From Maribacter spongiicola (lineage in GTDB: Bacteria; Bacteroidota; Bacteroidia; Flavobacteriales; Flavobacteriaceae), in NCBI RefSeq assembly GCF_004364165.1, contig NZ_SOAY01000010.1, positions 1,391,098-1,455,097 on the forward strand: a stretch of DNA of 64,000 nt, written 5' to 3'. The position numbers and the translations under genes were made by a program. Positions 277 to 57,319 of the stretch are shown in pieces. The notes beneath the pieces are model-generated. The model had not been told where the DNA came from. It was given only the letters and a program-made list of their open reading frames with translations, and did not search any database. The stretch's first letter is position 1, and every line of letters starts with the position of its first letter.

Positions 277-666
277 TTTAAATTTAGATATGGTTTGATT
301 GTTTTATTCAGATTTAATGTCGCTAGTACTTCATTTTAATACGATATATGTAATGTGTAATCGATAACTTCTGTGAATATCTTTAATTTTTGTTTAAAAT
401 ATTGAAAATTTGATAACCTAAAAATATATTATTTTTTGTAGTTGACTTCTTTTTTCTATGTATTAACAAGATGTTAACAGTTGTGGTTTTTCGATTTGTT
501 TTTTTATAATTTTTTTGGATTAAAAAGTTATATAAAAATCATACATGGCACCTTTTTAATCATATCTATCATCTGTTCGATTTTGAATTATATAGTTTTA
601 ATCACAACAAATTTTACAGCTCGTTAAGGGCGCTAAATTCAAACATAACTTACAGAACTTAAAAGA
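277..666. other. 390-bp divergent intergenic region
   Basis: This AT-rich region lies between the divergent DUF1080 and Gfo/Idh/MocA genes. It holds one recognisable element, the tandem-repeat operator and -7 box at 534-600 that points to the right. I see no matching operator for the leftward gene, no small ORF with coding character and no RNA gene. Confidence 0.6.
534..600 (+). promoter_or_regulatory. AraC-type tandem operator plus -7 box, upstream of the Gfo/Idh/MocA gene
   Basis: Half-sites AAAAATCATACATGG (TCAT at 539) and TTTAATCATATC (TCAT at 560) are exactly 21 bp apart. A -7-like box TAGTTTTA sits at 593-600, starting 33 bp after the second TCAT. The spacing is the same as in nine other promoters of the window. 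The box ends 66 bp before the ATG at 667. Confidence 0.75.
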
Positions 667-1986
667 ATGAAGAACGCTAAAAAATCTAAGAAAATTTCTG
701 ACCAAACCCTTTCTCGAAGAGGTTTTTTGACTAAAACAACCCTGGCTGCTGGGGCAATTACCATTCTGCCAAGGCATGTTTTCGGCAGAGGCTTTACTGC
801 ACCTAGCGATAGAATTAATTTAGGTTTTATAGGCTTAGGTAAACAATGTAATGGGTTGGCTAAGAATTTTATAGGCAATACCAGTGCCCAAATTATTGCT
901 GCCAGCGATGTTTGGTCTACTAAAAATGACTGGTTTAAAGGTCATGTAGAAAGTACTTACGCAGAAAAACGAAATCAAAAAAACTATAACTCTGTAAAAA
1001 CATATTTAAATTATAAGGAGCTTTTAGAGCGCAGTGATATTGATGGCGTGGTCATCGCAACGCCTGATCATTGGCATGCCATACAGGCAATCGATGCTAT
1101 GAAAGCTGGTAAAGATGTGTATTGTGAAAAGCCCTTAACGCATAATATTGAAGAAGGTATTGCACTTGTTAAGACGACCAAAAAGACAGGTCAAATTTTG
1201 CAGACGGGCAGTATGCAAAGATCATGGAGTTCTTTTAGAAAGGCATGTGAACTAATTCGTAATGGTTACTTGGGAGATATTAAGCAGGTACTTGTAAATG
1301 TTGGTGACCCAGCAATTCCATATAATTTAAAAGCAGAAACAATGCCGTCTGAAATTAACTGGAACAATTGGTGCGGTCCAGCTCCTTTGTTGGCTTATAA
1401 TCATCGTTTGGCACCTTCTCGTAATAATGTAGATTTTTGGCCAGATTGGCGACTTTTTGAAGAAGTTGGCGGTGGTATTCTTTGTGATTGGGGTGCGCAT
1501 ATGTTCGATATTGTTCAATGGGCTTTAGATATGGATCGATCAGGACCTGTAAAATACGTTCCGCCAACAGATAAAAATGCGGTACGTGGATTGAAAATGT
1601 ATTATGAAAACGGAATAGAAATGATACATGAAGATTTTGGTAGAGGATGGGGTGTGCGTTTTATTGGTTCTGAAGGTACTATGGATGTAAGTAGATCGTA
1701 TTTAGAAACTACTCCAGAAAATATTTTAACTACAGATTTATCTAATGCCAAAGTAAAACTATACAATACTGAGGGTAATCATCTTAAAGATTGGTTAGAT
1801 GCTATGAAGACTAGAACGCAGCCAATTTGCGATGTAGAAACTGGGCATAGATCTGCTACTGTATGTAACATTGCCAATATCGCCTATAATTTAGGTAGAC
1901 CGTTAGAATGGAACCCAACAAAAGAGAAGTTCTTAAAAGATGCTGAAGCCAACAAAATGCGTGGCAGAAAAGCACGCAAGTTTTAA
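667..1986 (+). CDS. Tat-exported Gfo/Idh/MocA family oxidoreductase
   Basis: An NAD(P)-dependent sugar dehydrogenase fold of 439 residues. A twin-arginine signal (SRRGFLTKTTLAAGA, RR at 17-18) predicts export in folded form, presumably with bound cofactor. The Rossmann motif GFIGLGKQ (53-60), ATPDHWH (131-137), the family signature CEKPLTHN (EKP 154-156) and the C-terminal-domain motif WGAHMFDIVQW (275-285) are all present. The length is normal for the exported subgroup common in Bacteroidota and Planctomycetota. It probably oxidises a sugar or oligosaccharide hydroxyl in the periplasm, which fits DUF1080 (3-keto glycoside) proteins at 1-276 and 28775. Its promoter carries the shared operator (534-600), so it belongs to the PUL regulon. 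The substrate is unknown, and an epimerase- or hydrolase-like activity through transient oxidation is also possible. Confidence 0.92.
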   Translation: MKNAKKSKKISDQTLSRRGFLTKTTLAAGAITILPRHVFGRGFTAPSDRINLGFIGLGKQCNGLAKNFIGNTSAQIIAASDVWSTKNDWFKGHVESTYAEKRNQKNYNSVKTYLNYKELLERSDIDGVVIATPDHWHAIQAIDAMKAGKDVYCEKPLTHNIEEGIALVKTTKKTGQILQTGSMQRSWSSFRKACELIRNGYLGDIKQVLVNVGDPAIPYNLKAETMPSEINWNNWCGPAPLLAYNHRLAPSRNNVDFWPDWRLFEEVGGGILCDWGAHMFDIVQWALDMDRSGPVKYVPPTDKNAVRGLKMYYENGIEMIHEDFGRGWGVRFIGSEGTMDVSRSYLETTPENILTTDLSNAKVKLYNTEGNHLKDWLDAMKTRTQPICDVETGHRSATVCNIANIAYNLGRPLEWNPTKEKFLKDAEANKMRGRKARKF

Positions 1987-1996
1987 AACAAATTAT

Positions 1997-2866
1997 TTAG
2001 ATATTCACCTGCTCTTTTCTGAAAAAAGCAGGTGTTTTTCCTGTATGCTTTTTAAATAGCCTAGAGAAGTAAGAGCTATTATTTAAACCCACTTTTTCAG
2101 CAATTTCGTTTAAAGAGTCATTAGTGGTAAGAAGTAGCAATTGTGACCGCTCTATTCTTTTTTCTTGAATGAATTTATTAGGATTGGATTTATATACCTG
2201 TTTAAAAAGTCTTGAGAAATGATCAGGACTATAATTGCAAATTTCAGCTAACTCAACTACTGTAATCGGTAATTGTAAATTATTGTTGATATAGTTCAAT
2301 ATGTTTTGCATTCCATAATTAGTAACCTGTATTTTATTTTGCACATTATAACTGGTAATAAATTTGGAGAAGAGTACGGTAAGTAAACCTTGGGTTTCTA
2401 GAAAGTCTTTTGTGCTCAACACTTCATTCTGCTTAATAAAATCTTGCAATGTAGGTTTATTGTCATATGTTTTTGGATCACTATTCATGATTTCCCTATT
2501 CCTGTTTAAAGCAAGTAAACATTCAAAATACTCTTTGTCGTTATCACCTGCTTCAATTTCATAATTAAAATTTTTTAGGCTGTATATAGAAATTCCATTG
2601 TTTACTTCCTCTAAAAAACTAATGTAAAATTGCTCATGATAGTTGTCGCAAGAGAATTTGGCATAACTATAACTTGGTATCAAGTACATGTAGCCCGGCT
2701 TTAAAGTGAATAACTGATTGTTATGGTACACCTTAGCACTCCCCTTGGTGATGTAATACATTCTGGTGAACGGACTAATCACATTCTCAAAATTCCATGA
2801 GGTGTTAAGCTTGGCATAGCCAATATTCAAAAGAGTTAAGCGTAAAGATTGAAGTATCTGAATCAT
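1997..2866 (-). CDS. AraC-family transcriptional regulator
   Basis: A 289-residue cytoplasmic regulator. Residues about 20-140 form an AraC-type cupin sensor (FTRMYYITKGSAKVYHN, then LKPGYMYLIPSYSYAKFSC). Residues about 185-285 form the double helix-turn-helix (LPITVVELAEICNYSPDHFS, then NEIAEKVGLNNSSYFSRLFKK). No signal peptide or membrane segment is seen, so it should sense an intracellular sugar, unlike hybrid two-component PUL regulators. It is the only PUL-type regulator gene in the window. I infer that it binds the 21-bp-spaced tandem repeats found before ten transcription units. I see no good copy of that operator before its own gene. Its 3' end overlaps the terminator hairpin of the converging gene at 667-1986. 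Confidence 0.93.
   Translation of the reverse strand: MIQILQSLRLTLLNIGYAKLNTSWNFENVISPFTRMYYITKGSAKVYHNNQLFTLKPGYMYLIPSYSYAKFSCDNYHEQFYISFLEEVNNGISIYSLKNFNYEIEAGDNDKEYFECLLALNRNREIMNSDPKTYDNKPTLQDFIKQNEVLSTKDFLETQGLLTVLFSKFITSYNVQNKIQVTNYGMQNILNYINNNLQLPITVVELAEICNYSPDHFSRLFKQVYKSNPNKFIQEKRIERSQLLLLTTNDSLNEIAEKVGLNNSSYFSRLFKKHTGKTPAFFRKEQVNI
2006..2039 (+). terminator. Rho-independent terminator of the Gfo/Idh/MocA gene, inside the 3' end of the AraC gene
   Basis: Arms CACCTGC (2006-2012) and GCAGGTG (2028-2034) are followed by five T on the plus strand. The hairpin sits about 20 bp after the stop of the plus-strand gene, and its arms also encode the last residues of the converging AraC protein. 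Confidence 0.6.
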
Positions 2867-3032
2867 AAATAGTTCGCTTTATTTCTTATTCAAAGCAGTT
2901 TTAAAGCTTGATTATCGTATTAGTGAAATTAAAATATTATTTCGGCCATCGGCTACAAGGTTTTAAAATTAAAGAATTTGCCCTTAATATCAACTCGATT
3001 TAATATAGACATATCGGAAATGTATATTTTAT

Positions 3033-3077
3033 GAACTGATTTGTAACAGTCTTTAGGGTTTTGATAATTTATTTTTG
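3033..3077 (+). promoter_or_regulatory. Promoter of the cytochrome/DUF1501/GH29 operon with a degenerate shared operator
   Basis: A perfect -7 box TATTTTTG lies at 3070-3077, 25 bp before the ATG at 3103. Exactly 33 bp upstream of its first base is ACTGATTTGTAAC (TGAT at 3037), a near match to the proximal half-site of the other promoters. The distal half-site 21 bp further up (around 3016) is poor. It is likely a weak member of the same regulon. Confidence 0.5.
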
Positions 3078-3102
3078 GAAGGATACTTATTTATAATATT
3101 TT

Positions 3103-6100
3103 ATGACAAATTTTATCAAACTTATAATATTCGGATTTTTTATTGTGGTATTATCATCTTGTGGTGGTCCAGAACTTCCTGAATTGGTAGCAGTGGCTTA
3201 TGATAAACTACCTGAAGAAGTAGATTTTAATCAACATGTAAAACCTATATTATCTGATAAATGCTATTTGTGCCATGGTCCAGATAAAGGAAACATTAAA
3301 GGAGGTCTACAACTTCATGATGCAGAATTTGCATACGGCGAACTGAGTGAAACGCTTGGTAAGTTTGCGATTACACCTGGTAATTTAAAGAAGAGCGAAT
3401 TCTTTCATCGAATTATAACAGATGATCAAGACTTGATAATGCCTGCGCCAAGTTCTCATTTAACCCTTACCGCTTATGAAAAAGCGGTTTTAGTAAAATG
3501 GATAGAAGATGGTGCCGAATACAAGGATCACTGGGCATTTTTGCAACCAGAAAAATATGATATTCCTGAGGTAGACCAAAAACAATCCGTTAATAATGAA
3601 ATTGACAATTTTGTATTGGCAAAGTTAGGTGAAGTCAATCTGAAGCCATCTGAAATGGCTTCGAAAGAGGTATTGTTGCGTAGAGCTTCTTTTGATTTAA
3701 TAGGTTTACCACCAACACCTAAAGAAATAGAATTGTTTTTAAAAGATACTTCTTCGAATGCATTTGAAAAACAAATAGATAGATTGCTAGCTTCAACGCA
3801 CTTCGGGGAACAAATGACCCTCGATTGGATGGATGTTTCGCGCTATGCAGATACTCATGGGTATAGTAATGATCGATATAGAGATACTTCACCCTGGCGA
3901 GATTGGGTCATTAAATCATTCAATGAAAATATGCCATATGATGAATTTCTTACTTGGCAATTGGCGGGCGATTTGTTTGAGAATCCGACCCTAGAACAAA
4001 AACTAGCAACCACATTTAATAGATTGCATCCGCAGAACTTAGAAGGTGGTATTATTGACGAAGAATTTAGGTCAGAATATGTAGCCGATAGAACAGCTAC
4101 GGTAAGTCAAGGTATCTTAGGCTTATCTTATGCCTGCGCAAAATGCCATGATCATAAATACGATCCCATCTCTCAGAAAAACTATTACGAGATGTATAGC
4201 TTTTTCAATAATATAGACGAAACGGGATTAATTCCTTGGGATTTGGCTACACCCGTACCGGCGATGTTATTACCAACTGAAGAGCAAGAAGGTGTTTTAG
4301 CATATTTAGAGGAAATTGTAAAAACCACTGAGAAAAGACTGGCGGAAACAGAAACAACCGAAGTTCAGAAAGCAGAGGTATGGTTGGCTAGTAACGACTA
4401 TAAAAACATTCCTGTAAATAGTAAACCTAATGGACTGGTCGCCGCATTCAATTTTGATGAACAAAAACTTATTAATACCGTAGGTGGTAATGGTCGCAAT
4501 AAAATTCAAATGCGTCAAGAGTTTGTGCAGAACGAAAAAGCAGCCTATAAGCAAGGTGCTTCGGGTATGGGCTTGGCGATGGATGGTGATACGTGGCTAG
4601 ATTTGGATAAAATTGGAATTTATAAAAGAAATGAACCGTTCAGTATTTCTATTGAAGTATTTATACCGACTGACTTAGACGATGGGGTAATATTCCATAA
4701 AATGAATAGCTCTGAACTACACTCGTTTAGAGGATATCATCTAAAAATAAAAGAGAATAAAATAGAAGCATTATTAGCACATGTGTATCCAGATAATGCG
4801 ATAGTTATTGAGTCTTTAAATGATGTACCTAAAGAGAAATGGATTCAGTTAACGATGACTTATGACGGTTCTAGTAAAGCTGAAGGAATTTCAATTTATC
4901 AAGACGGCGAAAAACTGAAAACCAAAACAACGTTCGATAATCTTTATAAAGATATTGTATTTAATGGCTTGCAATTATATGGTGCAGAGAGTCCAAAATT
5001 AGAACCAGGCTTGAGAGTAGGGGCTATTTGGCGAGATAAGGGTATTAGAGGGGCTGTAGTAGATAATTTATTGGTATTCGATAGAGAAATTTCAGCTATT
5101 GAGGTGCTACAAATAAAGAATTCTGATAAGTTAAAAGAGCTGCAACAAAAGCAATTTTCAAACTTAAGTGCATCTGAAAAACAACAATTATCAGCATACT
5201 TTTTAAATACAAAATCTAAAGCATATGCAACTGTTCTCAAAGAGGTAGAGCTTAAAAGAAGAGCTTTAGTAGATAGCATAGAAAAAGTCAAACAAATAAT
5301 GGTTATGAAAGAGCGTAAAACGCCTCGTCAAGCCTATATTTTAGATAGAGGAAATTACGATTCACCTACCGATTCGGTTTTTCCCAATGTGCCTGAAGAT
5401 ATTTTACCATGGAAAAAAGAATGGCCAAAAAACAGGCTAGGTTTGGCTAAATGGATAACAGATGAGAAAAATCCGTTGACGGCTAGAGTAACGGTGAACA
5501 GGTACTGGCAAAATTTATTTGGTAGAGGATTGGTATTAAGTTCAGAAGATTTTGGTAATCAAGGCGATTTACCTACTCACCCTAAGTTGCTAGATTGGTT
5601 GGCTATTGGTTTTGTTGATTCCGGTTGGGATGTCAAACTATTATTAAAAACCATGATGATGTCTCGAACATACCAACAGAGTTCGGTTATAAGCGAAGAA
5701 CTTCTTGCAGTCGATGGGGAAAATAAGTGGTTGTCTCGCGGACCTTCTACACGACTATCTGGTGAGATGCTTCGAGATAACGCGCTATACGCATCAGGGT
5801 TGTTAAATGAAAAAATTGGAGGGGAGAGCGTAAAACCTTATCAACCCGAGGGGTTATGGGAAGTGAACGGTGACACCTATGTTCAAGATAGTGAAGAAGG
5901 ACTTTATAGAAGAAGTATGTATACCATTTGGAAAAGAACGGTTCCAAACCCAACTATAGCCACATTTGATGCACCCACAAGAGATTTATGTTCTTCTCGA
6001 CGACAGAAAACAAATACGCCATTACAAGCCCTAGTTATACTTAACGATCCCACTTACATAGAAGCTTCAAGAGTTCTAGGGAAAAGAATTTCTGAAGCTA

Positions 6101-6357
6101 CTTCTATTGAAACGGGAATTCGTTCCGCATTTATAAAATTGACGGGTAGAGCACCCAATGAAAAGGAGTTGTCATTATTGATGAACCTTCAGAAAGAAGA
6201 GTATTCAAAATTTCAAAAGAACATTGATAAAACAAAGGGCTGGATAAATACAGGTGCTTTCAAATTAAGCCAAACAGATGACAAAGCGCTTATTGCAGCA
6301 AATGCCGTAGTGGCAAGTACAATTATGAATGCAGATGCCACCATCACAAAAAGATAA
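3103..6357 (+). CDS. DUF1549/DUF1553 lipoprotein with two c-heme motifs (planctomycete-type cytochrome C domain)
   Basis: A 1084-residue exported lipoprotein (lipobox LSSC, Cys20). In order: a PSCyt1 cytochrome c-like domain with CYLCH at 54-58, a DUF1549 domain (about 165-370) containing a second heme motif CAKCH at 345-349 followed by DHKYDP, a LamG-like concanavalin fold insert (about 440-680), and a DUF1553 domain (about 780-1070; WRNLFG-like stretch NRYWQNLFGRGLV, then RRSMYTIWKRT and TNTPLQALVILNDP). The family is abundant in Planctomycetota, usually paired with DUF1501 as here, and its reaction is unknown. Two CxxCH motifs suggest electron transfer. It is the first gene of a tight operon (gaps of 19-26 bp) ending in a GH29 gene, which argues for a role in sugar oxidation or cleavage. 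Confidence 0.9.
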   Translation: MTNFIKLIIFGFFIVVLSSCGGPELPELVAVAYDKLPEEVDFNQHVKPILSDKCYLCHGPDKGNIKGGLQLHDAEFAYGELSETLGKFAITPGNLKKSEFFHRIITDDQDLIMPAPSSHLTLTAYEKAVLVKWIEDGAEYKDHWAFLQPEKYDIPEVDQKQSVNNEIDNFVLAKLGEVNLKPSEMASKEVLLRRASFDLIGLPPTPKEIELFLKDTSSNAFEKQIDRLLASTHFGEQMTLDWMDVSRYADTHGYSNDRYRDTSPWRDWVIKSFNENMPYDEFLTWQLAGDLFENPTLEQKLATTFNRLHPQNLEGGIIDEEFRSEYVADRTATVSQGILGLSYACAKCHDHKYDPISQKNYYEMYSFFNNIDETGLIPWDLATPVPAMLLPTEEQEGVLAYLEEIVKTTEKRLAETETTEVQKAEVWLASNDYKNIPVNSKPNGLVAAFNFDEQKLINTVGGNGRNKIQMRQEFVQNEKAAYKQGASGMGLAMDGDTWLDLDKIGIYKRNEPFSISIEVFIPTDLDDGVIFHKMNSSELHSFRGYHLKIKENKIEALLAHVYPDNAIVIESLNDVPKEKWIQLTMTYDGSSKAEGISIYQDGEKLKTKTTFDNLYKDIVFNGLQLYGAESPKLEPGLRVGAIWRDKGIRGAVVDNLLVFDREISAIEVLQIKNSDKLKELQQKQFSNLSASEKQQLSAYFLNTKSKAYATVLKEVELKRRALVDSIEKVKQIMVMKERKTPRQAYILDRGNYDSPTDSVFPNVPEDILPWKKEWPKNRLGLAKWITDEKNPLTARVTVNRYWQNLFGRGLVLSSEDFGNQGDLPTHPKLLDWLAIGFVDSGWDVKLLLKTMMMSRTYQQSSVISEELLAVDGENKWLSRGPSTRLSGEMLRDNALYASGLLNEKIGGESVKPYQPEGLWEVNGDTYVQDSEEGLYRRSMYTIWKRTVPNPTIATFDAPTRDLCSSRRQKTNTPLQALVILNDPTYIEASRVLGKRISEATSIETGIRSAFIKLTGRAPNEKELSLLMNLQKEEYSKFQKNIDKTKGWINTGAFKLSQTDDKALIAANAVVASTIMNADATITKR

Positions 6358-6383
6358 TTGGCTAACCTTAAACGTATAAAACT

Positions 6384-7898
6384 ATGTGTAACGATCATCA
6401 ACATAAATTAAGGTCTAATAATAAAGATTTACAAAAATTAGAAAGTCAGCTAGACAGAAGACATTTCTTAAAGAAAACGTCTTTGGGTATTGGAGCCTTG
6501 GCGTTGGGTAGTCTTTTGGGTACAGAAAAATTATTCGCAGGTATTGATAAGAATAGTGCGCCCGAAGATATTCTAAAAGCATATAATAAGAATAGATTAG
6601 GTCTGCCACATCATCTACCTAAGGCAAAGAGAATTATCTATCTATTTCAAAGTGGAGGTCCCTCACAGATGGATTTGTTCGATTACAAGCCAAAGCTTTC
6701 AGATATGTTCGGTAAAGAACTGCCGGACTCTGTAATGAGTGGTCAGCGATTAACAGGTATGAGTGGTAACCAAAGCACACTGCCCATTGCACCATCAACT
6801 TTTAACTTTAAGCAATACGGAGAATCTAGAGCTTGGGTCAGTGATGCAATGCCCTATTTATCTGAGGTAGTTGACGATTTGTGTTTTATAAAAGGAATGC
6901 AGACGGATCAAATTAATCACACTCCGGCAATAACGTTTATGCAAACAGGTAATCAGTTACCGGGTAGACCTTCTATTGGCTCGTGGTTAAGCTATGGTCT
7001 TGGTTCTGACAATGAAAACCTACCTACGTTTATTACCCTAGTTTCTAAAAATGGAAAAGGACAACCGTTAAAGGCTAGTTTATGGGGTAACGGATTTTTA
7101 CCTACCGAACACCAAGGCGTGCAATTTCGCTCGGGTAAAGACCCAGTGTTGTACCTAAGTGACCCAGAAAATTATGATGGAAATGACCGTAGGCATATGT
7201 TAGATTATTTGGGTAATCTTAATAACCTTCAACACGATGCTTATGGTGATCCAGAAATTCAGGCTAGAATGTCGCAGTACGAAATGGCTTTTAAAATGCA
7301 AACTTCTGTACCTGAGGTTTCAGATCTTTCAGACGAATCGGACAGCACTTTTGAGATGTATGGTAAAGATAGTAGGGATCCAGGCACTTATGCTGCAAAT
7401 TGTCTCATGGCAAGAAAACTATTAGAAAAAGGCGTAAAATTTGTGCAGCTGTATCACCAAGGTTGGGATCAGCATAACTACTGTCCGGGTGGGGTTAAAA
7501 GTCAATCACAGAAAACAGACCAAGCTACTGCTGCATTGGTCAAAGATTTAAAACAACGTGGTATACTAGATGATACCTTGGTAGTTTGGGGTGGTGAATT
7601 TGGTAGAACGGTCTACTCTCAAGGGCAACTTACAAAAGAAAACTATGGTCGAGATCATCACCCAAAAGCATTTACCATGTGGATGGCAGGTGCAGGTGTA
7701 AAGCCAGGTTTTAGCTATGGCGAAACAGATGACTTTAGCTATAACGTGGTTAAAGATCCTGTGCATGTGCACGATTTTCATGCAACGCTTTTACATCTAT
7801 TCGGTGTTGATCATGAACGATTAACCTTTAAACATCAAGGTAGACGATACCGCTTAACCGATGTTCATGGTAACGTAGTCAAAGATTTATTAACCTAG
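6384..7898 (+). CDS. Tat-exported DUF1501 protein
   Basis: A 504-residue protein with a twin-arginine signal (RRHFLKKTSLGIGALALG, RR at 25-26). The remainder is a DUF1501 domain, related to the alkaline phosphatase/sulfatase-like fold. Visible motifs include YLFQSGGPSQMDLFDYKP near the start, VQLYHQGWDQH in the middle, WGGEFGRT and GRDHHPKAF near residues 405-430, and a C-terminal HDFHATLLHLFGVDHERL segment; the His/Asp-rich pattern is consistent with metal binding. It follows the DUF1549/DUF1553 gene by 26 bp, the standard pairing in Planctomycetota. No activity is established for the family. Export through Tat implies that it folds, possibly with metal, before transport. Confidence 0.9.
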   Translation: MCNDHQHKLRSNNKDLQKLESQLDRRHFLKKTSLGIGALALGSLLGTEKLFAGIDKNSAPEDILKAYNKNRLGLPHHLPKAKRIIYLFQSGGPSQMDLFDYKPKLSDMFGKELPDSVMSGQRLTGMSGNQSTLPIAPSTFNFKQYGESRAWVSDAMPYLSEVVDDLCFIKGMQTDQINHTPAITFMQTGNQLPGRPSIGSWLSYGLGSDNENLPTFITLVSKNGKGQPLKASLWGNGFLPTEHQGVQFRSGKDPVLYLSDPENYDGNDRRHMLDYLGNLNNLQHDAYGDPEIQARMSQYEMAFKMQTSVPEVSDLSDESDSTFEMYGKDSRDPGTYAANCLMARKLLEKGVKFVQLYHQGWDQHNYCPGGVKSQSQKTDQATAALVKDLKQRGILDDTLVVWGGEFGRTVYSQGQLTKENYGRDHHPKAFTMWMAGAGVKPGFSYGETDDFSYNVVKDPVHVHDFHATLLHLFGVDHERLTFKHQGRRYRLTDVHGNVVKDLLT

Positions 7899-7917
7899 TA
7901 GTCAACAAATAACATTT

Positions 7918-9024
7918 ATGCCAACCAGAAGAAATTTCATAAAAAAAACCGCTATTGCAGGTGCAGCTTTAACGGCTGTACCAACATTCGGATTCAATAC
8001 TCTAAAAAAGAATAAACCGGCTGATACCATATTAGGTCATGGCGATTATCAATACAAGGTGCATAACGATTGGGCACAAATAAGTTCGGTTAGAACACCC
8101 TTGTTGAACTGCCATGAAATGGAAATGGATAGTAAAGGTCGTTTAATTATGATCGGTGATCACCCACAGAACAATGTGTTGATATTTGATAAATCTGGGA
8201 AATTATTAGACTATTGGGGAACTGCCTACCCAGGTGGTCATGGGTTGACTATTTCAAATGAAGGAGGCGAAGATTTTCTGTTTTTGGCTGATTCTGGGTG
8301 GTACCTAAATAAAATAGGAAAGTGGATTAAGCATAACGGTAGAGTTTCAAAGACTACCATAGATGGTAAAGTGCTTTTTGATATTGGGCATCCACAAACT
8401 ATTGGTGTTTATGAAGCGGGACTAAATTATTGCCCTACAGAAGTTGCTGTGGGTCCTAATGGTGATATCTACGTTGCAGACGGTTATGGGCAAGATTTTA
8501 TTTTACAGTACAATTATAAGGGCGAGTTTATACGTAAATGGGGCGGTCATGATAATGAAGATTCGAATTATAATCTTCAAAATGCACATGGTGTAGCAAT
8601 AGATTATAGAGATAAAAATAACCCCATGGTGGTCTGTACTTCTAGAAACGAACAATCGTTTAAGTGGTTTACACTAGACGGTATCTATGTTAAAACACTT
8701 ACACTCCCTAATATGCAGGTATGTAGACCTGTTTTTGATGATACTAATTTGTACGCTGGCGTATGTTGGTCTCAGCCAAAAGTCGGAAAAACAAATTGGA
8801 AAGATCATACTGGCTTTGTTACCATCTTAGAAGGTGATAAAGTAGTTTCTAATCCAGGTGGAACCACGCCCGAATATAAAAATGGTGAACTGCAAAAATC
8901 ATATCAGTTAGAGAATAAGCCTATTCTACATGGACATGATGTATGTGTAGATGAAGATAAAAATTTATACATCTGCCAATGGAACGCCAATAAAACGGCA
9001 CCCATTAAATTAGAACGTGTTTAA
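7918..9024 (+). CDS. Tat-exported NHL-repeat six-bladed beta-propeller protein
   Basis: A 368-residue protein beginning with a twin-arginine-like signal (RRNFIKKTAIAGAALTAVPTFG). The body shows NHL-type blades: NVLIFDKSGKLLDYWG, EVAVGPNGDIYVADGYG, FILQYNYKGEFIRKWGG, AHGVAIDYRDKNN and HDVCVDEDKNLYICQWN. The fold resembles the propellers of peptidyl-alpha-hydroxyglycine lyase and gluconolactonase-like proteins, but I see no decisive catalytic set. It is third in the cytochrome/DUF1501 operon, 19 bp after the previous stop. It could bind or hydrolyse the oxidised (lactone or keto) product of the module, or be a docking protein. The function is inferred from fold only. Confidence 0.85.
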   Translation: MPTRRNFIKKTAIAGAALTAVPTFGFNTLKKNKPADTILGHGDYQYKVHNDWAQISSVRTPLLNCHEMEMDSKGRLIMIGDHPQNNVLIFDKSGKLLDYWGTAYPGGHGLTISNEGGEDFLFLADSGWYLNKIGKWIKHNGRVSKTTIDGKVLFDIGHPQTIGVYEAGLNYCPTEVAVGPNGDIYVADGYGQDFILQYNYKGEFIRKWGGHDNEDSNYNLQNAHGVAIDYRDKNNPMVVCTSRNEQSFKWFTLDGIYVKTLTLPNMQVCRPVFDDTNLYAGVCWSQPKVGKTNWKDHTGFVTILEGDKVVSNPGGTTPEYKNGELQKSYQLENKPILHGHDVCVDEDKNLYICQWNANKTAPIKLERV

Positions 9025-9045
9025 AGTGATTTTGAAGAAATAGTT

Positions 9046-10437
9046 ATGGAGAATAGTGTTCCAGATTTTGTATTGTTCTTAGGTAGATTTCATCCGCTTG
9101 TGGTGCATTTACCTATTGGTTTTTTGTTTTTTGCATTTGTATTGGAAGTTTTTAGTCGTTGGAAAAAGAATCCTGTGCTAACCTCAGGTATTCCGTTGGC
9201 TTTATTTTTAGGTGGACTTAGTGGTGCCGTTGCGTGTATTTTAGGGTATATGTTATCATTAAGTGGCGATTATGAAGAGGCTGCTTTAGATACTCATTTT
9301 TGGTTTGGTATTGCAACCACTGCTATTGCATTTATAGCATGGGGTATACGAATCGAAAAAATTAAAGTATCAAGCTTAAAAAAGTTACAGCCAAATATTG
9401 CATTTCTGACCCTATTGGTAATTCTATTAAGTGTTACGGGTCATTACGGTGGTAACCTTACACATGGTAGTGATTATTTGGTGAAATATATGCCTTTTGG
9501 TGGTGCAGAAAAACAAGAACTGGTTGCGGTTACTAAAGTTGAAGATGCTGAGGTTTTTGGTCATCTGGTAAATCCTATTTTGCAGAATAAATGTGCAAGT
9601 TGCCATAATTCAAGTAAAAAGAAAGGCGGACTTTCAATTGCAGATAGTCTGGCTATTCTTAATGGGGGAAAAAACGGTGATATATTAATTCCTGGTGATG
9701 CATCGAATTCTGAAATGCTGAAAAGAGTATTGTTAGATCCGCATCACGATGATTTTATGCCGCCCGAAGGTAAAACACCCTTAACCGAAGAAGAGATAGC
9801 TATTTTGACGTATTGGATCGATAATGCGCAGGCGAATTTCAAAACGAAGGTAGCATCGGTTGAAACAGATGAGAATATTACGGGTATAGCTAGCACTATG
9901 CTTGGCTTGTCAGCAGGATCTTCTAGTGGTTCAGAGATACCGATTCCGAGTGTGAGTTTAGTTGCTGATGATAAAATAACTGAACTACAGGTAGAAGGCT
10001 TTAGATTACGTGAACTGGCATTTGAATCTGGATTGTATGAAGCTGTTCTAGCGCCAAATTCAAATGAAAATGGTACAACCGATGACATGTCCAAAAAACT
10101 CGAAAAGTTACTTTCTATAAAAGAGAATATTCTATGGTTATCATTAGAGAATAATGAAATTAAAGATGACCATATAAAATTGATAGCTCAGTTTATAAAT
10201 GTTCAAAAATTGAAATTGAACGATAATCCTTTGTCAGATGCAGCAGTTGCTCAATTAACGCAGCTAGAGAATTTAACGAGTGTAAATCTATTAGGTACTA
10301 ATATAACGGCTAAAAGTATCCCTTCTTTTTCTGAAATGAAGCAGCTCAAATATGCCTATGTTTGGAAAACGAAAATCAAAAAAGAAGATTTAGAGAAAAA
10401 AGGGATTAATGATTATCCTAAAATTATAATTGATTAA
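9046..10437 (+). CDS. Inner-membrane c-type cytochrome with leucine-rich repeat domain
   Basis: A 463-residue protein. Four hydrophobic segments near residues 18-36, 48-70, 85-101 and 117-133 form a DUF2231-like membrane domain with HPLVVHLPIGF. A cytochrome c domain follows, with CASCH at 183-187, a downstream Met (DFMPPEGKTPL) as likely heme ligand, and YWIDNAQ. The C-terminal part (about 310-460) is leucine-rich repeats (LWLSLENNEIKDDHIKLIAQF and similar). It probably receives electrons from periplasmic partners and passes them to the membrane chain. It is fourth in the operon, 21 bp after the NHL gene and 25 bp before the GH29. The LRR part may bind a partner protein. The electron-transfer role is inferred from the heme motif. 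Confidence 0.88.
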   Translation: MENSVPDFVLFLGRFHPLVVHLPIGFLFFAFVLEVFSRWKKNPVLTSGIPLALFLGGLSGAVACILGYMLSLSGDYEEAALDTHFWFGIATTAIAFIAWGIRIEKIKVSSLKKLQPNIAFLTLLVILLSVTGHYGGNLTHGSDYLVKYMPFGGAEKQELVAVTKVEDAEVFGHLVNPILQNKCASCHNSSKKKGGLSIADSLAILNGGKNGDILIPGDASNSEMLKRVLLDPHHDDFMPPEGKTPLTEEEIAILTYWIDNAQANFKTKVASVETDENITGIASTMLGLSAGSSSGSEIPIPSVSLVADDKITELQVEGFRLRELAFESGLYEAVLAPNSNENGTTDDMSKKLEKLLSIKENILWLSLENNEIKDDHIKLIAQFINVQKLKLNDNPLSDAAVAQLTQLENLTSVNLLGTNITAKSIPSFSEMKQLKYAYVWKTKIKKEDLEKKGINDYPKIIID

Positions 10438-12010: not shown

Positions 12011-12076
12011 AAGATCATATGTTATAGTGTAAAAAACATTTGAAAAGATATTTTCTTTAGTGGTCGATTAACTTTA
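12011..12076 (+). promoter_or_regulatory. AraC-type tandem operator plus -7 box, upstream of the first GH16 gene
   Basis: Half-sites AAGATCATATGTTATAG (TCAT at 12015) and AAAAAACATTTGAAAAG (ACAT at 12036) are exactly 21 bp apart. The -7 box TAACTTTA lies at 12069-12076, 33 bp after the proximal anchor. It ends only 14 bp before the ATG at 12091, so the mRNA leader would be very short. Confidence 0.8.
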
Positions 12077-23178: not shown

Positions 23179-23243
23179 CAAATATTTAATTATTACACTG
23201 GGCTTAGGATAACAAATGATTTTTAAAGGGTAACAAATGTGTT
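23179..23243 (-). promoter_or_regulatory. AraC-type tandem operator plus -7 box of susC
   Basis: On the minus strand the half-sites are ACATTTGTTACCC (anchor 23240-23237) and AAAAATCATTTGTTATCC (anchor 23219-23216), exactly 21 bp apart. The -7 box AATATTTG lies at 23186-23179, 33 bp after the proximal anchor, and ends 30 bp before the susC ATG. Confidence 0.85.
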
Positions 23244-23582: not shown

Positions 23583-23648
23583 TTACTCATATGTTTTGTT
23601 CATAAAATCATTTGTTATTCCGTAATCCTAAAAAATAGGTAACTTTTG
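23583..23648 (+). promoter_or_regulatory. AraC-type tandem operator plus -7 box, upstream of sulfatase 1
   Basis: Half-sites ACTCATATGTTTTG (TCAT at 23587) and AAAATCATTTGTTATTCC (TCAT at 23608) are exactly 21 bp apart. The -7-like box AACTTTTG at 23641-23648 starts 33 bp after the proximal anchor. The proximal half-site is nearly identical to the one before susC. Confidence 0.8.
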
Positions 23649-23706
23649 TAAAGCGTATAATGCGTATCATGTATTGCAAATTCTGATCTTAAAAACTCTC
23701 TTAAAA

Positions 23707-27042: not shown

Positions 27043-27108
27043 TAAATCATTTGGTCTATTATAAAAGACATACGTTTTAATGCTTTCGCCAAGATAATTC
27101 GAATTTCG
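27043..27108 (+). promoter_or_regulatory. AraC-type tandem operator with a weak -7 box, upstream of GH29 copy 2
   Basis: Half-sites AAATCATTTGGTCTATT (TCAT at 27047) and GACATACGTTTTAATG (ACAT at 27068) are exactly 21 bp apart. At the expected 33-bp offset lies GAATTTCG (27101-27108), a poor -7 box. The GH29 ATG is 41 bp further on. Confidence 0.65.
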
Positions 27109-29703: not shown

Positions 29704-29769
29704 TTAATCATCCGTTCTAGTTTCAGAATCATACGTTATTGGCGATGGTGTGCTATTGAATTATTTTTG
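29704..29769 (+). promoter_or_regulatory. AraC-type tandem operator plus -7 box, upstream of sulfatase 2
   Basis: Half-sites TTTAATCATCCGTTCTAG (TCAT at 29708) and AGAATCATACGTTATTGG (TCAT at 29729) are exactly 21 bp apart. A perfect -7 box TATTTTTG lies at 29762-29769, 33 bp after the proximal anchor and 33 bp before the ATG. Confidence 0.88.
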
Positions 29770-43021: not shown

Positions 43022-43087
43022 TAAAAGTAGATATACCAATGATGAATAAGGGCAAGAGATAGGCAGAATACTACCATATATGATTTT
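43022..43087 (-). promoter_or_regulatory. AraC-type tandem operator plus -7 box of the six-gene operon
   Basis: On the minus strand the half-sites are AAAAATCATATATGGTAG (anchor 43083-43080) and a weaker CTATCTC (anchor 43062-43059), 21 bp apart. The -7 box TACTTTTA is at 43029-43022, at the standard 33-bp offset. The stretch on both sides matches the operator before the GH16 at 57229 at many positions. Confidence 0.7.
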
Positions 43088-43140: not shown

Positions 43141-43206
43141 TAGCACATCTGTTTTAGAGGTTAAATCATTTGTGATGTTGATGAGACATTATATTATTTA
43201 ATTTTG
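43141..43206 (+). promoter_or_regulatory. AraC-type tandem operator plus -7 box of sulfatase 5
   Basis: Half-sites AGCACATCTGTTTTAG (ACAT at 43145) and TTAAATCATTTGTGATG (TCAT at 43166) are exactly 21 bp apart. A perfect -7 box TAATTTTG lies at 43199-43206, 33 bp after the proximal anchor and 46 bp before the ATG. Confidence 0.85.
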
Positions 43207-46196: not shown

Positions 46197-46262
46197 TAAA
46201 ATTAATCTGAATAGATTTTGGTTCAACCATTATATGTTCAGAAGTATAACACATATGGTTTT
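46197..46262 (-). promoter_or_regulatory. AraC-type tandem operator plus -7 box of GH16 copy 3
   Basis: On the minus strand the half-sites are AAACCATATGTGTTATAC (anchor 46258-46255) and TGAACATATAATGG (anchor 46237-46234), exactly 21 bp apart. The -7 box TAATTTTA lies at 46204-46197. The region also contains an overlapping inverted arrangement of the same sequence (AACCAT...ATGGTT). Confidence 0.85.
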
Positions 46263-48089: not shown

Positions 48090-48809
48090 TTAAGGATTCG
48101 TAGACCATAAAGATGCACTTTTTAGCATTGCTCTTCTCGGTAATTTTAAACCGCCAAGAATCAATTCAGCAAAATCTTCGGGTTGTAAAACGCTATCTTC
48201 TGAACCCTTTTCTGCAATACCTGCTTCAATTGACATATCAGATTCTATGGTGCTTGGGGTTAATGTAACAACCCTAATATTGTTTTTACGTACTTCTTTC
48301 ATCAATGATTCAGACATGCCAATAACTGCAAATTTTGATGCTGAATAGGCTGATGTAGTTGCATTTCCGGTTAATCCTGCTGTAGAAGACACATTAATAA
48401 TATCGCCTTCATTTTTAGCAATTAAATACGGCAAAACTTCTTTAGTCACATAATACATACCCATAAGATTGGTCTGTATAATTTGAGACCATTGGTCAAC
48501 CGGCATCTCATTAAATGATCCAAAGCCCCCTATACCTGCGTTATTAACCAAAATATCGACACCTCCTAATGTGTTTATGAGGTTTTTAATACTTGTTTTA
48601 ACATCCTCATAATTGCTTACATCGAATACCGCATAAGTAGCGCTAACACCCAGAGCTTCTATTTCTGAAACGGTTTCTTTTAATGTACTTTCTGTTCTGC
48701 CAGTAATGGCTACATCAATACCTTCTTTGGCAAATGCTATTGCCGTCGCTTTACCAAGACCTCTACCACCACCTGTAATGATGGCTTTTTTATTTTTTAA
48801 GTTTTCCAT
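48090..48809 (-). CDS. Short-chain dehydrogenase/reductase (SDR), FabG-like
   Basis: The start is set at the ATG at 48809 (239 residues), 13 bp after the previous stop; the longer frame overlaps that gene. Classical SDR motifs: cofactor loop TGGGRGLGKA, NNAG (INNTL..VDILVNNAGIGG), catalytic Ser in NVSSTAGL and YSASK (Tyr-x-x-x-Lys). It is a cytoplasmic NAD(P)-dependent reductase of broad type, closest in motifs to 3-ketoacyl-ACP reductase-like proteins. It is last in a three-gene operon with a beta-propeller/Dabb protein and an HbpS-like protein under a Crp/Fnr-type palindrome. The substrate is unknown. It does not look like part of the galactan pathway. Confidence 0.9.
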   Translation of the reverse strand: MENLKNKKAIITGGGRGLGKATAIAFAKEGIDVAITGRTESTLKETVSEIEALGVSATYAVFDVSNYEDVKTSIKNLINTLGGVDILVNNAGIGGFGSFNEMPVDQWSQIIQTNLMGMYYVTKEVLPYLIAKNEGDIINVSSTAGLTGNATTSAYSASKFAVIGMSESLMKEVRKNNIRVVTLTPSTIESDMSIEAGIAEKGSEDSVLQPEDFAELILGGLKLPRRAMLKSASLWSTNP

Positions 48810-48822
48810 TTCTCTTTCAAAA

Positions 48823-50349: not shown

Positions 50350-50371
50350 AATTGAGGTTCTTTGTGAATAA

Positions 50372-50860
50372 TTAGTCTACTATTGATTTTGCTCCTGCTG
50401 TAGCTATTGCTCTATCTTGTTCTATTGTTCCGCCGCTTACACCGATGGCTCCAATAATTTTACCGTCTTTATTTTTAATAGGTAAGCCGCCAGGAAAAGT
50501 CATTAGACCACCATTAGAATGCTCAATATTGTAAATAATACCACCTGGTTGGGTTAATTCGCCCAATTCACCTGTGTCAATATCAAAATATCTTGCTGTC
50601 TTTGCTTTTTTTATAGCTACGTCTATACTGCCTAAAAATGACTCATCCATTCGAATGAATGCTTTTAAATTTGCACCTGCATCGACCACTGCAATGTTTA
50701 CCAGTACATTTGAATCTTCAGCATTTTTCTTTGCGGCTAAAAGAATTTCAAAGGCTTCATCGTGCGAAATGTCATTTGTAATTTGAGCATAAGTTGTAGT
50801 TGACATAGTTGTTAATGCCAGTGCGATAACCCAAACTTTAATTTGCTTAAATAAGTTCAT
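50372..50860 (-). CDS. HbpS/GlcG-family exported protein
   Basis: A 162-residue protein with a signal peptide (ends TTYAQ). The HbpS/GlcG (DUF336, heme-degrading/binding-like) fold is shown by VNIAVVDAGANLKAFIRMDESFLGSIDVAIKKAKTA and PGGLPIKNKDGKIIGAIGVSGGT near the C terminus. Family members bind heme or small aldehydes/acids and are linked to oxidative stress in some bacteria. It opens a three-gene operon, directly behind an 18-bp TGTTGAAC/GTTCAACA palindrome and an AATATTTG -7 box, with a Crp/Fnr regulator gene just upstream. The role is inferred; the family call is firm. Confidence 0.9.
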   Translation of the reverse strand: MNLFKQIKVWVIALALTTMSTTTYAQITNDISHDEAFEILLAAKKNAEDSNVLVNIAVVDAGANLKAFIRMDESFLGSIDVAIKKAKTARYFDIDTGELGELTQPGGIIYNIEHSNGGLMTFPGGLPIKNKDGKIIGAIGVSGGTIEQDRAIATAGAKSIVD

Positions 50861-50884
50861 AATTACGTTTATTAGTTAAGCTTA

Positions 50885-50930
50885 CAAATATTGGAAATCA
50901 CTTCTAAAAAATTGTTGAACAAGTTCAACA
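50885..50930 (-). promoter_or_regulatory. Crp/Fnr-type palindromic operator and -7 box of the HbpS-like operon
   Basis: TGTTGAAC-AA-GTTCAACA (50913-50930) is a perfect 8-bp inverted repeat with a 2-bp spacer. The core TTGAAC/GTTCAA resembles Fnr/Crp half-sites. A -7-like AATATTTG lies at 50892-50885 on the minus strand, 20 bp downstream, so the operator would cover about -35 to -50. The Crp-family gene ends 10 bp upstream of the palindrome. Confidence 0.65.
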
Positions 50931-50939
50931 CGATTATGA

Positions 50940-51521
50940 TTATTGAATTTTATCTTGTTTTTTTATTTTACTCAAAAACTCATGCGTAATGCCTAAATAA
51001 CTTGCCATTTGTCTATCCGTAAGTTTCAAAACAATTTCAGGATAACGTGTCGTAAAATAATAATAGCGCTCTTTTGCTGTTAAGCTGTTGTTTCTAACCA
51101 CTCTTCGCTGCCAAGCCACAATTGATTTTTGGAACATGATTCGAAAAAATTTCTCAGCAATAGGTAATTCATTATAAAGGGTAGTTTTGTCTTCTTGAGA
51201 GATGATCAAAATCTTGCTGTCTTCTAAAGCTTGAATATTTAAATCTGATGGTTTGTGGTTCATAAAACTATCTATATCCATCAGCCACCAATCTTTAGCG
51301 GCAAAGTATAATGTATTTTCATTCCCTTTTTTATCTAATGAAAAAACTCTAAAACACCCTTCAGTTACAAACGCTTCAAATTTGCAAAACTCGCCTTGCT
51401 TGAGTAAAAATTCTCTTTTTGAAATAGTTTTGGCACTAAAAAAACTACAAAATTTTTCAGCTTCGGCAATCGACACTGCTCTATTTTTAGTAATATTTTC
51501 AATTAATAAATCGTAAATCAT
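50940..51521 (-). CDS. Crp/Fnr-family transcriptional regulator
   Basis: A 193-residue cytoplasmic regulator. The cyclic-nucleotide-binding-like jelly roll spans about 25-120 (SKREFLLKQGEFCKFEAFVTEGCFRVF, ENTLYFAAKDWW). The C-terminal helical region (LTDRQMASYLGITHEFLSKIKKQ) holds the helix-turn-helix that recognises DNA, shorter than in E. coli Crp. This subgroup is typical of Bacteroidota. A 10-bp palindrome TACACGTGTA (51535-51544) lies just before its ATG and may be an autoregulatory or sigma-related site. It probably controls the HbpS-like operon through the palindrome at 50913-50930. The ligand is unknown. Confidence 0.92.
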   Translation of the reverse strand: MIYDLLIENITKNRAVSIAEAEKFCSFFSAKTISKREFLLKQGEFCKFEAFVTEGCFRVFSLDKKGNENTLYFAAKDWWLMDIDSFMNHKPSDLNIQALEDSKILIISQEDKTTLYNELPIAEKFFRIMFQKSIVAWQRRVVRNNSLTAKERYYYFTTRYPEIVLKLTDRQMASYLGITHEFLSKIKKQDKIQ

Positions 51522-51629
51522 ATTGTATTCTAATTACACGTGTAGTACAATAATTATCTAATGTAATAGTACTATTATAAGCTTTATGCGTGTTAAATAA
51601 TTGGTGCAATAGTATGTATCATTCTCAAT

Positions 51630-53462: not shown

Positions 53463-53480
53463 TTTTAAAGTTAGGTTGAT

Positions 53481-56354: not shown

Positions 56355-56365
56355 TTTTATTATTT

Positions 56366-57229
56366 CTATTTCCAAACTCTAAAATATTTTACGTGATATT
56401 CTCCATTTAGCTTATTCTCATCAGGTAATGCACCAAACCACTTGTTAGATTCACAATTAAAATTGACTTCTAAAGGTTGATGCCAATGTGTGTTTTTTGC
56501 CTCTCTAAATAGTATGCCATCTATATAGAAACGGATATATTCTTTTGTCCATTCTAGCCCCCAAACGTGATAATCTTTTTGTAGTTCTTTTGGGAAAAAA
56601 TATTTTTTGGTCCTAGAGAAATGTGTTTTAACATCCCCATGTTCTTTTGGAGATTTAAAAACATGGATATTTGAATTTAAATCATGGCGATTATTTTCAA
56701 CTCCGGGTGCGTTTTCACAGATATCAATTTCGGTCCACCAATCTTTATCTACGTTCGTCATCCAAAAACCTGAAACCCATGGCGCATCCATTAATTTAGC
56801 TTCAGCTTCAAAATATCCATACAGAAATTTATTTTTACTTTTTATAAAGCCTGTTGAATGCGTAAACTCTTTTGGTAATTTTTCAGTTCCATGTTGGTTT
56901 ACCTTAATTACTAACTCCCCATTTATTTGACTCACGTTTGATTTATGGAAATATGTTGGTGGTCTTCCTTTCCATTTTGGGTTATTTGGAAACCATTTAT
57001 TTTGATTCAATTGATCACTACTAAATTCATCAGAATATTTTTTTAATAGTTTCCAATCTTTAGAATTAAGTTGGTCCGATAATGGGTAGTTAGAATTTTC
57101 TCTGACAATACTTTTTTCGATTTGAACGGAATCGACATATTTTTTTGGTGGAACGGTTAGATCTTGAGCAATAACCTTTGTCGCTATAAAGAACAATACC
57201 AAAACATATTGAATTTTTACAAACCTCAT
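56366..57229 (-). CDS. GH16 endo-galactanase-like enzyme (copy 4)
   Basis: A 287-residue secreted enzyme (signal ends VIAQ). Single GH16 domain with KYSDEFSSDQLNQNKW, WKGRPPTYFHKSNVSQING and catalytic strand EIDICE (Glu167, Asp169, Glu172). Cys in place of Gln inside the strand and the segment ENAPGVENNRHDLNSNIHVF set it apart from the three ELDIQE/EIDIQE copies. It is likely to have a different cut site or tolerance to sulfate. It is first in the GH16-GH2-sulfatase operon, with the operator at 57254-57319. The stop codon is 12 bp from the GH2 start. Confidence 0.92.
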   Translation of the reverse strand: MRFVKIQYVLVLFFIATKVIAQDLTVPPKKYVDSVQIEKSIVRENSNYPLSDQLNSKDWKLLKKYSDEFSSDQLNQNKWFPNNPKWKGRPPTYFHKSNVSQINGELVIKVNQHGTEKLPKEFTHSTGFIKSKNKFLYGYFEAEAKLMDAPWVSGFWMTNVDKDWWTEIDICENAPGVENNRHDLNSNIHVFKSPKEHGDVKTHFSRTKKYFFPKELQKDYHVWGLEWTKEYIRFYIDGILFREAKNTHWHQPLEVNFNCESNKWFGALPDENKLNGEYHVKYFRVWK

Positions 57230-57253
57230 TTACTTCACTATTTAAATTTGAAA

Positions 57254-57319
57254 TAAAAATATTCTATAAGTGCAACTTGTTAAATTAGAGATGGACGGAA
57301 TGCTAACACATATGGTTAA
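57254..57319 (-). promoter_or_regulatory. AraC-type tandem operator plus -7 box of the GH16-GH2-sulfatase operon
   Basis: On the minus strand the half-sites are TTAACCATATGTGTTAGC (anchor 57315-57312) and TCCATCTC (anchor 57294-57291), exactly 21 bp apart. The -7 box TATTTTTA lies at 57261-57254, 24 bp before the ATG at 57229. The distal half-site shares AACCATATGTGTTA with the one before GH16 copy 3. Confidence 0.82.

What the first reader, a model, noticed from the sequence alone, without database searches (positions are those of the whole stretch)
534..57319. A ten-promoter regulon defined by 21-bp tandem half-sites locked to a -7 box
Ten intergenic regions (proximal anchors at 560, 12036, 23219, 23608, 27068, 29729, 43062, 43166, 46237 and 57294) carry two copies of a half-site near AAATCATWYGTTAT. 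The NCAT anchors are exactly 21 bp apart each time. A -7-like box (TAnnTTTG/A or a near match) starts exactly 33 bp after the proximal anchor in all ten, on both strands. Two helical turns between direct repeats is the known geometry of AraC-type activators, with the proximal site overlapping the -33 region. The downstream genes are susC, GH16, GH29, sulfatases and the Gfo/Idh/MocA oxidoreductase, so the whole locus looks co-regulated. I found no HTCS or SusR gene in view; the AraC gene at 1997-2866 is the best candidate.
Basis: partly seen in the sequence, partly recalled or inferred. Interest (0 to 1): 0.92.

Follow-up and report, generated by a model that had tools for sequence, protein, structure and literature searches.

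The report
Sensor-kinase regulon of a seaweed-sugar locus
A marine bacterium appears to switch on its seaweed-sugar gene cluster through twelve matching DNA sites, which are best explained as docking sites of a membrane sensor protein encoded just outside the window, not of the regulator first suspected.

Summary
All ten sites have half-sites 21 bp apart and a -7-type box at one fixed distance. A matrix of the ten finds two more sites just past the window, flanking one gene. A model that includes these twelve finds twelve hits at E <= 1.1e-4 in the 4.46-Mb genome, all within 68.6 kb; the next has E 0.098.

The named regulator is not supported. [quoted passage not shown] The motif follows the HTCS: hits at E <= 0.01 in 5 of 5 tested genomes with it but no AraC orthologue (weak in two), and in 0 of 5 with the AraC but no HTCS. 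The AraC protein has another predicted site before its divergent operon (window 3014-3047), found once in this genome and at 25 of 35 AraC loci.

HTCS motifs as direct repeats averaging 21 bp are published for Bacteroides (PMC3878776), so this is a new member of a known kind. It adds a conserved lock to the -7 box, used with different half-sites by two regulators in one locus. Nothing was tested experimentally.

The parts
536..600 (+). Site 1: repeats 536-571, box 593-600 (TAGTTTTA); before Gfo/Idh/MocA gene 667-1986
12012..12076 (+). Site 2: repeats 12012-12047, box 12069-12076 (TAACTTTA); before HYR-GH16 gene 12091-13281
23179..23243 (-). Site 3: repeats 23208-23243, box 23186-23179 (AATATTTG); before susC gene 19849-23148
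23584..23648 (+). Site 4: repeats 23584-23619, box 23641-23648 (AACTTTTG); before sulfatase gene 23674-25368
27044..27108 (+). Site 5: repeats 27044-27079, box 27101-27108 (GAATTTCG, weak); before GH29 gene 27149-28696
29705..29769 (+). Site 6: repeats 29705-29740, box 29762-29769 (TATTTTTG); before sulfatase gene 29803-31317
43022..43086 (-). Site 7: repeats 43051-43086, box 43029-43022 (TACTTTTA), proximal half-site weak (TAT); before sulfatase gene 41637-42941
43142..43206 (+). Site 8: repeats 43142-43177, box 43199-43206 (TAATTTTG); before sulfatase gene 43253-45052
46197..46261 (-). Site 9: repeats 46226-46261, box 46204-46197 (TAATTTTA); before GH16 gene 45126-46181
57254..57318 (-). Site 10: repeats 57283-57318, box 57261-57254 (TATTTTTA); before GH16 gene 56366-57229
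62952..64000 (-). Sulfatase gene cut by the window edge (furthest ATG at 64472 in continued coordinates). Beyond the edge, in L004: site 11 (repeats 64594-64629, box 64572-64565, minus strand), the HTCS gene (64628-68917, minus strand, L004:628-4917, 1429 aa) and site 12 (repeats 69058-69093, box 69115-69122, plus strand) before the sugar operon L004:5141-12405
   Evidence: sites 11 and 12 were not in the training set (30.0 and 29.0 bits)
1997..2866 (-). AraC-family gene, 289 aa (HTH_18 at residues 206-284); proposed regulator of the 3014 site only
3014..3077 (+). Predicted AraC site: TCGGAAATGTATA and CTGATTTGTAAC in a 21-bp register (3014-3047), box TATTTTTG starting at 3070; before the PSCyt/DUF1501 operon that starts at 3103

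Best explanation
The ten sites belong to a twelve-site regulon of the HTCS encoded immediately right of the window (64628-68917 in continued window coordinates). Proposed mechanism: the periplasmic Reg_prop/Y_Y_Y domain senses an oligosaccharide of the galactan that the locus degrades (porphyran- or agar-like is an inference from gene content). The kinase domain then passes phosphate to the fused receiver domain. The AraC-type DNA-binding domains are freed and bind as a pair to the two half-sites on one face of the DNA, from about -69 to -35. There they take the place of a -33 element and recruit sigma-A polymerase to the -7 box. Shown by computation: sites, spacing, register, genome-wide specificity, conservation with the HTCS. 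Inferred: binding, phosphorylation control, activation, ligand. The AraC protein at 1997-2866 most likely controls only the divergent PSCyt/DUF1501 operon through its own site.
For: HTCS domains. Two untrained sites flank the HTCS gene. Twelve hits at E <= 1.1e-4 in the whole genome, all in C1:1391631-1460219; the next hit has E 0.098 (the model includes these twelve, and the tool scored the best 150 of 8460 first-look candidates). Sites above 13 bits recur beside HTCS orthologues of 52-94% identity in 7 of 7 loci, and in 0 of 11 scanned loci with HTCS of 34% or less (L023 not scanned). Whole-genome model hits at E <= 0.01: 5 of 5 HTCS-without-AraC genomes (G126 5, G198 3, G312 7, G137 3, G101 1), 0 of 5 AraC-without-HTCS genomes, 0 of 5 with neither (none of these 15 genomes supplied sites to the model). 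Register: 61 sites found by half-sites alone (above 12 bits) in 37 HTCS loci; nAnnTTTR at +32 in 34 of 61, no other offset above 4; 0 of 25 background hits (above 10 bits). Separate AraC site. Published precedent: PMC3878776 (abstract and passages).
Against: No binding or expression data. Among 60 relatives (own genome included) the 9 with the AraC are the same 9 with an HTCS of 53% identity or more, and 7 of 7 orthologue genomes have both, so the separation rests on 5 + 5 more distant genomes. In two of the five HTCS-only genomes the best hit is weak (G101 E 0.004, G137 E 0.0014), the E-values are rough, and hits between E 0.017 and 0.1 occur in 4 of 5 AraC-only and 3 of 5 neither genomes. 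In HTCS-only genomes 11 of 19 hits at E <= 0.01 lie within 100 kb of the HTCS and 8 do not (my count). Among 23 loci of genomes with both genes, 20 of them about 7 kb long, 14 have a site above 14 bits and 9 have none. G027 has one hit (E 4.7e-5) although it lacks an HTCS at the cut-off; that hit lies next to a 41%-identical HTCS.
Confidence: 0.85

Rival explanations
1. The AraC-family protein at 1997-2866 binds the ten sites and activates the locus.
For: [quoted passage not shown]
Against: No model hit at E <= 0.01 in 5 of 5 tested genomes with the AraC but no HTCS orthologue, hits in 5 of 5 with the HTCS but no AraC. The AraC has its own conserved 21-bp repeat at 25 of 35 loci and once in this genome.
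Confidence: 0.06
2. Both regulators act on the twelve sites, for example the HTCS on all and the AraC on a subset with the weaker proximal half-site (561, 43061, 46236, 57293).
For: The four sites look alike (CATAYRTG distal, weak proximal half-site), and the two proteins occur together in close relatives.
Against: A comparable site (CATATGTTCTA, then CATATCTAATTA; L138:16304-) exists in G126, which has no AraC match at E <= 1e-50. The predicted half-sites of the two proteins differ.
Confidence: 0.07
3. Another AraC-type or HTCS protein elsewhere in the genome reads the sites.
For: The genome holds 32 HTH_18 matches, three of them in open frames above 1300 aa.
Against: All twelve sites lie in one 68.6-kb locus that contains this HTCS, and the motif follows its orthologues across genera.
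Confidence: 0.02

Closest known systems
HTCS regulons of Bacteroides thetaiotaomicron (Ravcheev et al. 2013, PMC3878776; abstract and passages seen)
   Same: Fused sensor kinase and AraC-type regulator in a polysaccharide locus; the predicted motif is a direct repeat with tandem sites on average 21 bp apart, on one DNA face, before operons of the locus.
   Different: Marine flavobacterium, its own half-site, twelve sites in one locus, and a measured fixed distance to the -7 box; that distance was not in the passages I saw. I did not compare the half-site with the published logos.
CgrA, AraC-family regulator of the Zobellia carrageenan locus (PMC5698469; passages seen)
   Same: AraC-family gene inside a red-algal galactan locus of a marine flavobacterium; its deletion gave a lag and reduced growth on carrageenans.
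   Different: No binding motif in the passages seen; here the locus-wide motif tracks the HTCS instead. Orthology with the window's AraC was not tested.
E. coli AraC at araI1-I2 (recalled, no call)
   Same: Two direct half-sites 21 bp apart, the proximal one at the edge of the -35 region.
   Different: Soluble sugar-binding AraC and a sigma-70 promoter; here a membrane kinase fusion and a Bacteroidota -7 promoter.

Membership tests
Hybrid two-component system (HTCS) protein | One polypeptide with periplasmic sensor repeats (Reg_prop, Y_Y_Y), HisKA, HATPase_c, receiver and AraC-type HTH_18 | tested here: met
   all six Pfam families over their cut-offs in L004:628-4917; periplasmic location not tested
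Hybrid two-component system (HTCS) protein | S/CHIP sequence in the receiver domain, linked to phosphorylation-dependent release of the DNA-binding domain (PMC11253607, passages) | tested here: met
   ETSHIPVV in the receiver domain; the DK part of the motif was not checked
HTCS regulon with 21-bp direct repeats (PMC3878776) | Tandem sites about 21 bp apart before operons of the locus that holds the HTCS gene | tested here: met
HTCS regulon with 21-bp direct repeats (PMC3878776) | Motif conserved with HTCS orthologues | tested here: met
   with misses: 9 of 23 both-gene loci without a site above 14 bits
HTCS regulon with 21-bp direct repeats (PMC3878776) | The HTCS DNA-binding domain binds the motif and activates transcription | not testable with these tools
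   Needs gel shift, DAP-seq or RNA-seq
Regulon of the AraC protein at 1997-2866 | Motif found with the AraC in genomes that lack the HTCS | tested here: not met
   0 of 5 tested genomes with a hit at E <= 0.01; 0 sites above 14 bits in 5 x 19 kb around the AraC
Sigma-A (Bacteroidota) promoter | TAnnTTTG-like -7 box at a constant distance from the activator site | tested here: met
   10 of 10 at the same offset, 7 of 10 TAnnTTTR; nAnnTTTR at +32 in 34 of 61 and TAnnTTTR in 13 of 61 orthologue-locus sites. Transcription starts were not mapped

The most novel reading that the evidence does not exclude
Regulators with AraC-type DNA-binding domains in Bacteroidota, both membrane HTCS and soluble AraC proteins, share one promoter architecture: direct half-sites 21 bp apart, held at a fixed distance from the sigma-A -7 box, so that the proximal half-site replaces the -33 element. 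Half-site sequence alone then tells regulators apart. Two regulators in this locus with different half-sites obey it. A scan that assumes no half-site sequence gives spacing 21 the highest count at 20 other HTCS loci (9 of 91 boxes; other spacings mean 1.53, maximum 3), and a third half-site type, ATGCAWCAA, shows the 21-bp repeat in loci of four genomes. Against it: background promoters also peak at 21 (7 of 143; mean 2.67, maximum 5), loci with distant HTCS show no peak (1 of 42; others at most 1), the scan is insensitive (the HTCS-orthologue loci themselves give only 3 of 67; another spacing also reaches 3), and some of the nine are likely orthologous promoters.
Probability: 0.45. Interest if true: 0.62.

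Novelty: new member of a known kind. Interest (0 to 1): 0.47.

Why it matters
It gives a marine galactan locus a concrete candidate regulator, a predicted set of twelve promoters that includes the sugar-catabolism operon next door, and a second, separate site for the AraC protein. [quoted passage not shown] johnsoniae in PMC7366714, passage).

Tried and rejected
I mistyped the gap (24 bp between repeat starts instead of 21); 0 of 50 hits fell in the locus. I use it only as an accidental spacing control; a gapped alignment of the ten sites was unusable; A3 aligned without gaps. Presence or absence in close relatives could not separate the two regulators, so I went to a family-wide sample of 299 genomes (cut-offs E 1e-50 for the AraC and 1e-250 for the HTCS, with only the best 8 and 2 candidates per genome scored): AraC in 26, HTCS in 24, both in 17, HTCS only in 7, AraC only in 9. 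I tested 5 of the 7 (left out G108 and G283, 38-39% identity) and 5 of the 9 (left out G071, G179, G208 and G360, 36-39% identity). I considered two separate motif classes for the four weaker sites and rejected it (see rivals). Self-similarity scans without a -7 box gave spacing 21 the top count in all four groups, background included, so they do not discriminate; with strict boxes the other HTCS loci peaked at 17, not 21. Literature searches: (0 papers); in what I saw I found no statement of a fixed HTCS-site to -7 distance, but most hits were seen as listings only, and subscription papers and supplements were not searched.
Full report
Setting. The window is G000:C1:1391098-1455097 of a 4.46-Mb genome. 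A same-genus genome, G017, has a contig of 671,654 bases, the same length as Maribacter sp. 1_MG-2023 contig NZ_JAUOPN010000001.1, so the genome is most likely a Maribacter (inference). The window holds a large polysaccharide utilization locus: SusC and SusD, several GH16, GH29 and GH2 genes, and many sulfatases.

The observation. I aligned the ten sites on the first base of the proximal CAT. The repeat distance is 21 bp in all ten, and a box begins 32 bp after that base in all ten. The box is TAnnTTTR in 7 of 10. One proximal half-site (43061-) begins TAT. The strict rule CAT-18-CAT-29-TAnnTTTR occurs 6 times, against a mean of 0.11 and a maximum of 2 in 100 Markov sequences; the other spacings tried give 0-2.

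The window cuts the set. A matrix from the ten sites, scanned over 144 kb, finds two further sites at 64604(-) and 69083(+) (continued window coordinates) with 30.0 and 29.0 bits; the next hit is 11.2, and the maximum in 400 kb of background is 18.2. Left-out scores of the ten are 14.5-24.2; two of ten (27069 and 46236) fall below the background maximum. A 68-column sequence model of 21 sites (these twelve plus nine from two Cellulophaga and one Tamlana genome) gives twelve hits at E <= 1.1e-4 in the whole genome, all in C1:1391631-1460219; the thirteenth has E 0.098 (the best 150 of 8460 first-look candidates were scored). The twelve trained the model, so the informative part is that nothing else found in the genome comes near.

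A hybrid two-component system lies next door. The two new sites flank an open frame of 1429 aa, L004:628-4917 (64628-68917 in continued window coordinates), with Reg_prop, Y_Y_Y, HisKA, HATPase_c, Response_reg and HTH_18. One new site precedes a sulfatase gene whose start lies beyond the window edge. The other precedes an operon of a zinc dehydrogenase, an altronate/galactarate dehydratase-type enzyme, a mannitol-dehydrogenase-type enzyme, an amidohydrolase, an SDR and an MFS transporter. From recalled pathway knowledge these fit oxidation of L-galactose through L-galactonate and tagaturonate, which together with GH16, GH29 and sulfatases suggests porphyran; L-fucose is the alternative. No substrate was tested.

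Which regulator. In close relatives the AraC and the HTCS occur together: of 60 genomes (own included) 9 have the AraC, and the same 9 hold HTCS matches of 53% identity or more; 7 of 7 genomes holding HTCS orthologues also have an AraC match (two of these are genomes already among the 60). In 299 genomes of the family the two come apart. I took 5 of 7 HTCS-only and 5 of 9 AraC-only genomes and searched them whole with the model, which contains no site from them (20 genomes in all, 150 candidates scored in each). At E <= 0.01: HTCS-only G126 5, G198 3, G312 7, G137 3, G101 1; AraC-only 0 in all five (best E 0.028); five genomes with neither, 0 (best E 0.017); G027 one, next to a 41%-identical HTCS; genomes with both, G017 11, G025 9, G241 3, G193 5. 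The hits of G137 and G101 are weak (best E 0.0014 and 0.004), and hits between 0.017 and 0.1 occur in 4 of 5 AraC-only and 3 of 5 neither genomes. Of the 19 hits in HTCS-only genomes 11 lie within 100 kb of the HTCS gene and 8 do not; in G312 only 1 of 7 does (my count). A matrix scan of 156 kb around the HTCS in the five HTCS-only genomes gives 15 sites above 14 bits, against 0 in 95 kb around the AraC in the five AraC-only genomes and 5 in 400 kb of background. Among 23 loci of genomes with both genes, 14 have a site and 9 have none.

Register conserved. Using half-sites only (above 12 bits), 61 sites were found in 37 HTCS loci; nAnnTTTR stands at +32 in 34 of 61, at any other offset in at most 4; TAnnTTTR stands there in 13, elsewhere in at most 2. 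Of 25 background hits (above 10 bits) none has it there. Some of the 61 are orthologous promoters and so not independent. With the flavobacterial -7 box at -12 to -5 (PMC9723704, passage), the repeats span about -69 to -35 (my arithmetic).

The AraC protein has another site. A geometry-only scan of AraC-only clusters gave 6 of 9 strict boxes with a 21-bp repeat. Four of the six precede the operon divergent from the AraC gene; the other two come from one L151 segment read on both strands. The fifth genome (L150) has the same kind of site at its divergent operon with a weaker self-match, so all five carry a TCGGAAA-like half-site followed by CTGATTT. Across 35 AraC loci, one per genome, 25 have it with at most 6 mismatches, against 3 of 200 background pieces, and in 23 of the 25 a -7 box starts at position 56 or 57. 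One of the 25 (L089) has no box and is probably chance, and L103 has no box; five Maribacter loci with about 54% identical AraC lack the site within 1.5 kb. In this genome it occurs once with at most 3 mismatches, at window 3014-3047, with no match of the reversed control; a looser scan of 144 kb also shows a 5-mismatch stretch at 79884.

Modules. In 19-kb stretches around the AraC of the five AraC-only genomes, PSCyt and DUF1501 genes are present in 5 of 5, NHL and close Gfo/Idh/MocA relatives in 3 of 5 each; these stretches also hold sulfatases, sugar-operon genes in 2 of 5 and a 36%-identical HTCS in one. Stretches around the HTCS of the HTCS-only genomes hold sugar-operon genes in 4 of 5 and various GH29, GH2, GH16 and sulfatase genes. 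The locus therefore looks like two modules with two regulators, though the split is not clean. Site 1 at 561 shows that the HTCS motif also reaches into the left module.

Mechanism. The most likely reading is an HTCS-controlled activator regulon, as predicted in Bacteroides, where HTCS motifs are direct repeats with an average distance of 21 bp (PMC3878776, abstract and passages). The receiver domain carries the SHIP sequence tied to phosphorylation-controlled DNA binding (PMC11253607, passages). Binding, activation and ligand are inferred.

Generality. With no half-site assumed, 20 further HTCS loci give 9 of 91 boxes with a 21-bp repeat (other spacings mean 1.53, maximum 3). Background also peaks at 21 (7 of 143; mean 2.67, maximum 5), eight loci with distant HTCS show 1 of 42, and the HTCS-orthologue loci themselves give only 3 of 67, a count another spacing also reaches, so the scan is insensitive. 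Among the nine, ATGCAWCAA repeats recur in loci of four genomes, likely orthologous promoters in part. This is suggestive only.

Verdict.

Noticed in passing
window 50372-51521: A small protein with a cNMP-binding domain (193 aa; the only Pfam hit) next to HbpS-like, Dabb and SDR genes; the same four genes stand in the same order beside the HTCS in G126 (L138).
   Followed up: partly
window 667-10437: Gfo/Idh/MocA, AraC, PSCyt1/PSCyt2/PSD1, DUF1501, NHL and DUF2231-PSCyt1 genes form a block that, in part, also occurs beside the AraC in the five tested genomes without the HTCS.
   Followed up: partly
L004:5141-12405: Operon for sugar-acid catabolism (zinc dehydrogenase, altronate/galactarate dehydratase type, mannitol dehydrogenase type, amidohydrolase, SDR, MFS); looks like L-galactose or L-fucose oxidation.
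   Followed up: partly
L078/L081, L080/L082, L093/L107, L094/L108, L097/L109: Tandem duplicates of the AraC gene in several genera (for example Algibacter mikhailovii and Tamlana sp. 2_MG-2023).
   Followed up: no
L183, L185, L187, L192: A third half-site type, ATGCAWCAA, repeated at 21 bp before -7-like boxes near other, about 37%-identical HTCS genes.
   Followed up: partly
L048-L052, upstream of the gene divergent from AraC: In five genomes with about 54% identical AraC, an HTCS-type site (20.8-25.1 bits) stands before the gene divergent from AraC, where the AraC-type site is missing.
   Followed up: no
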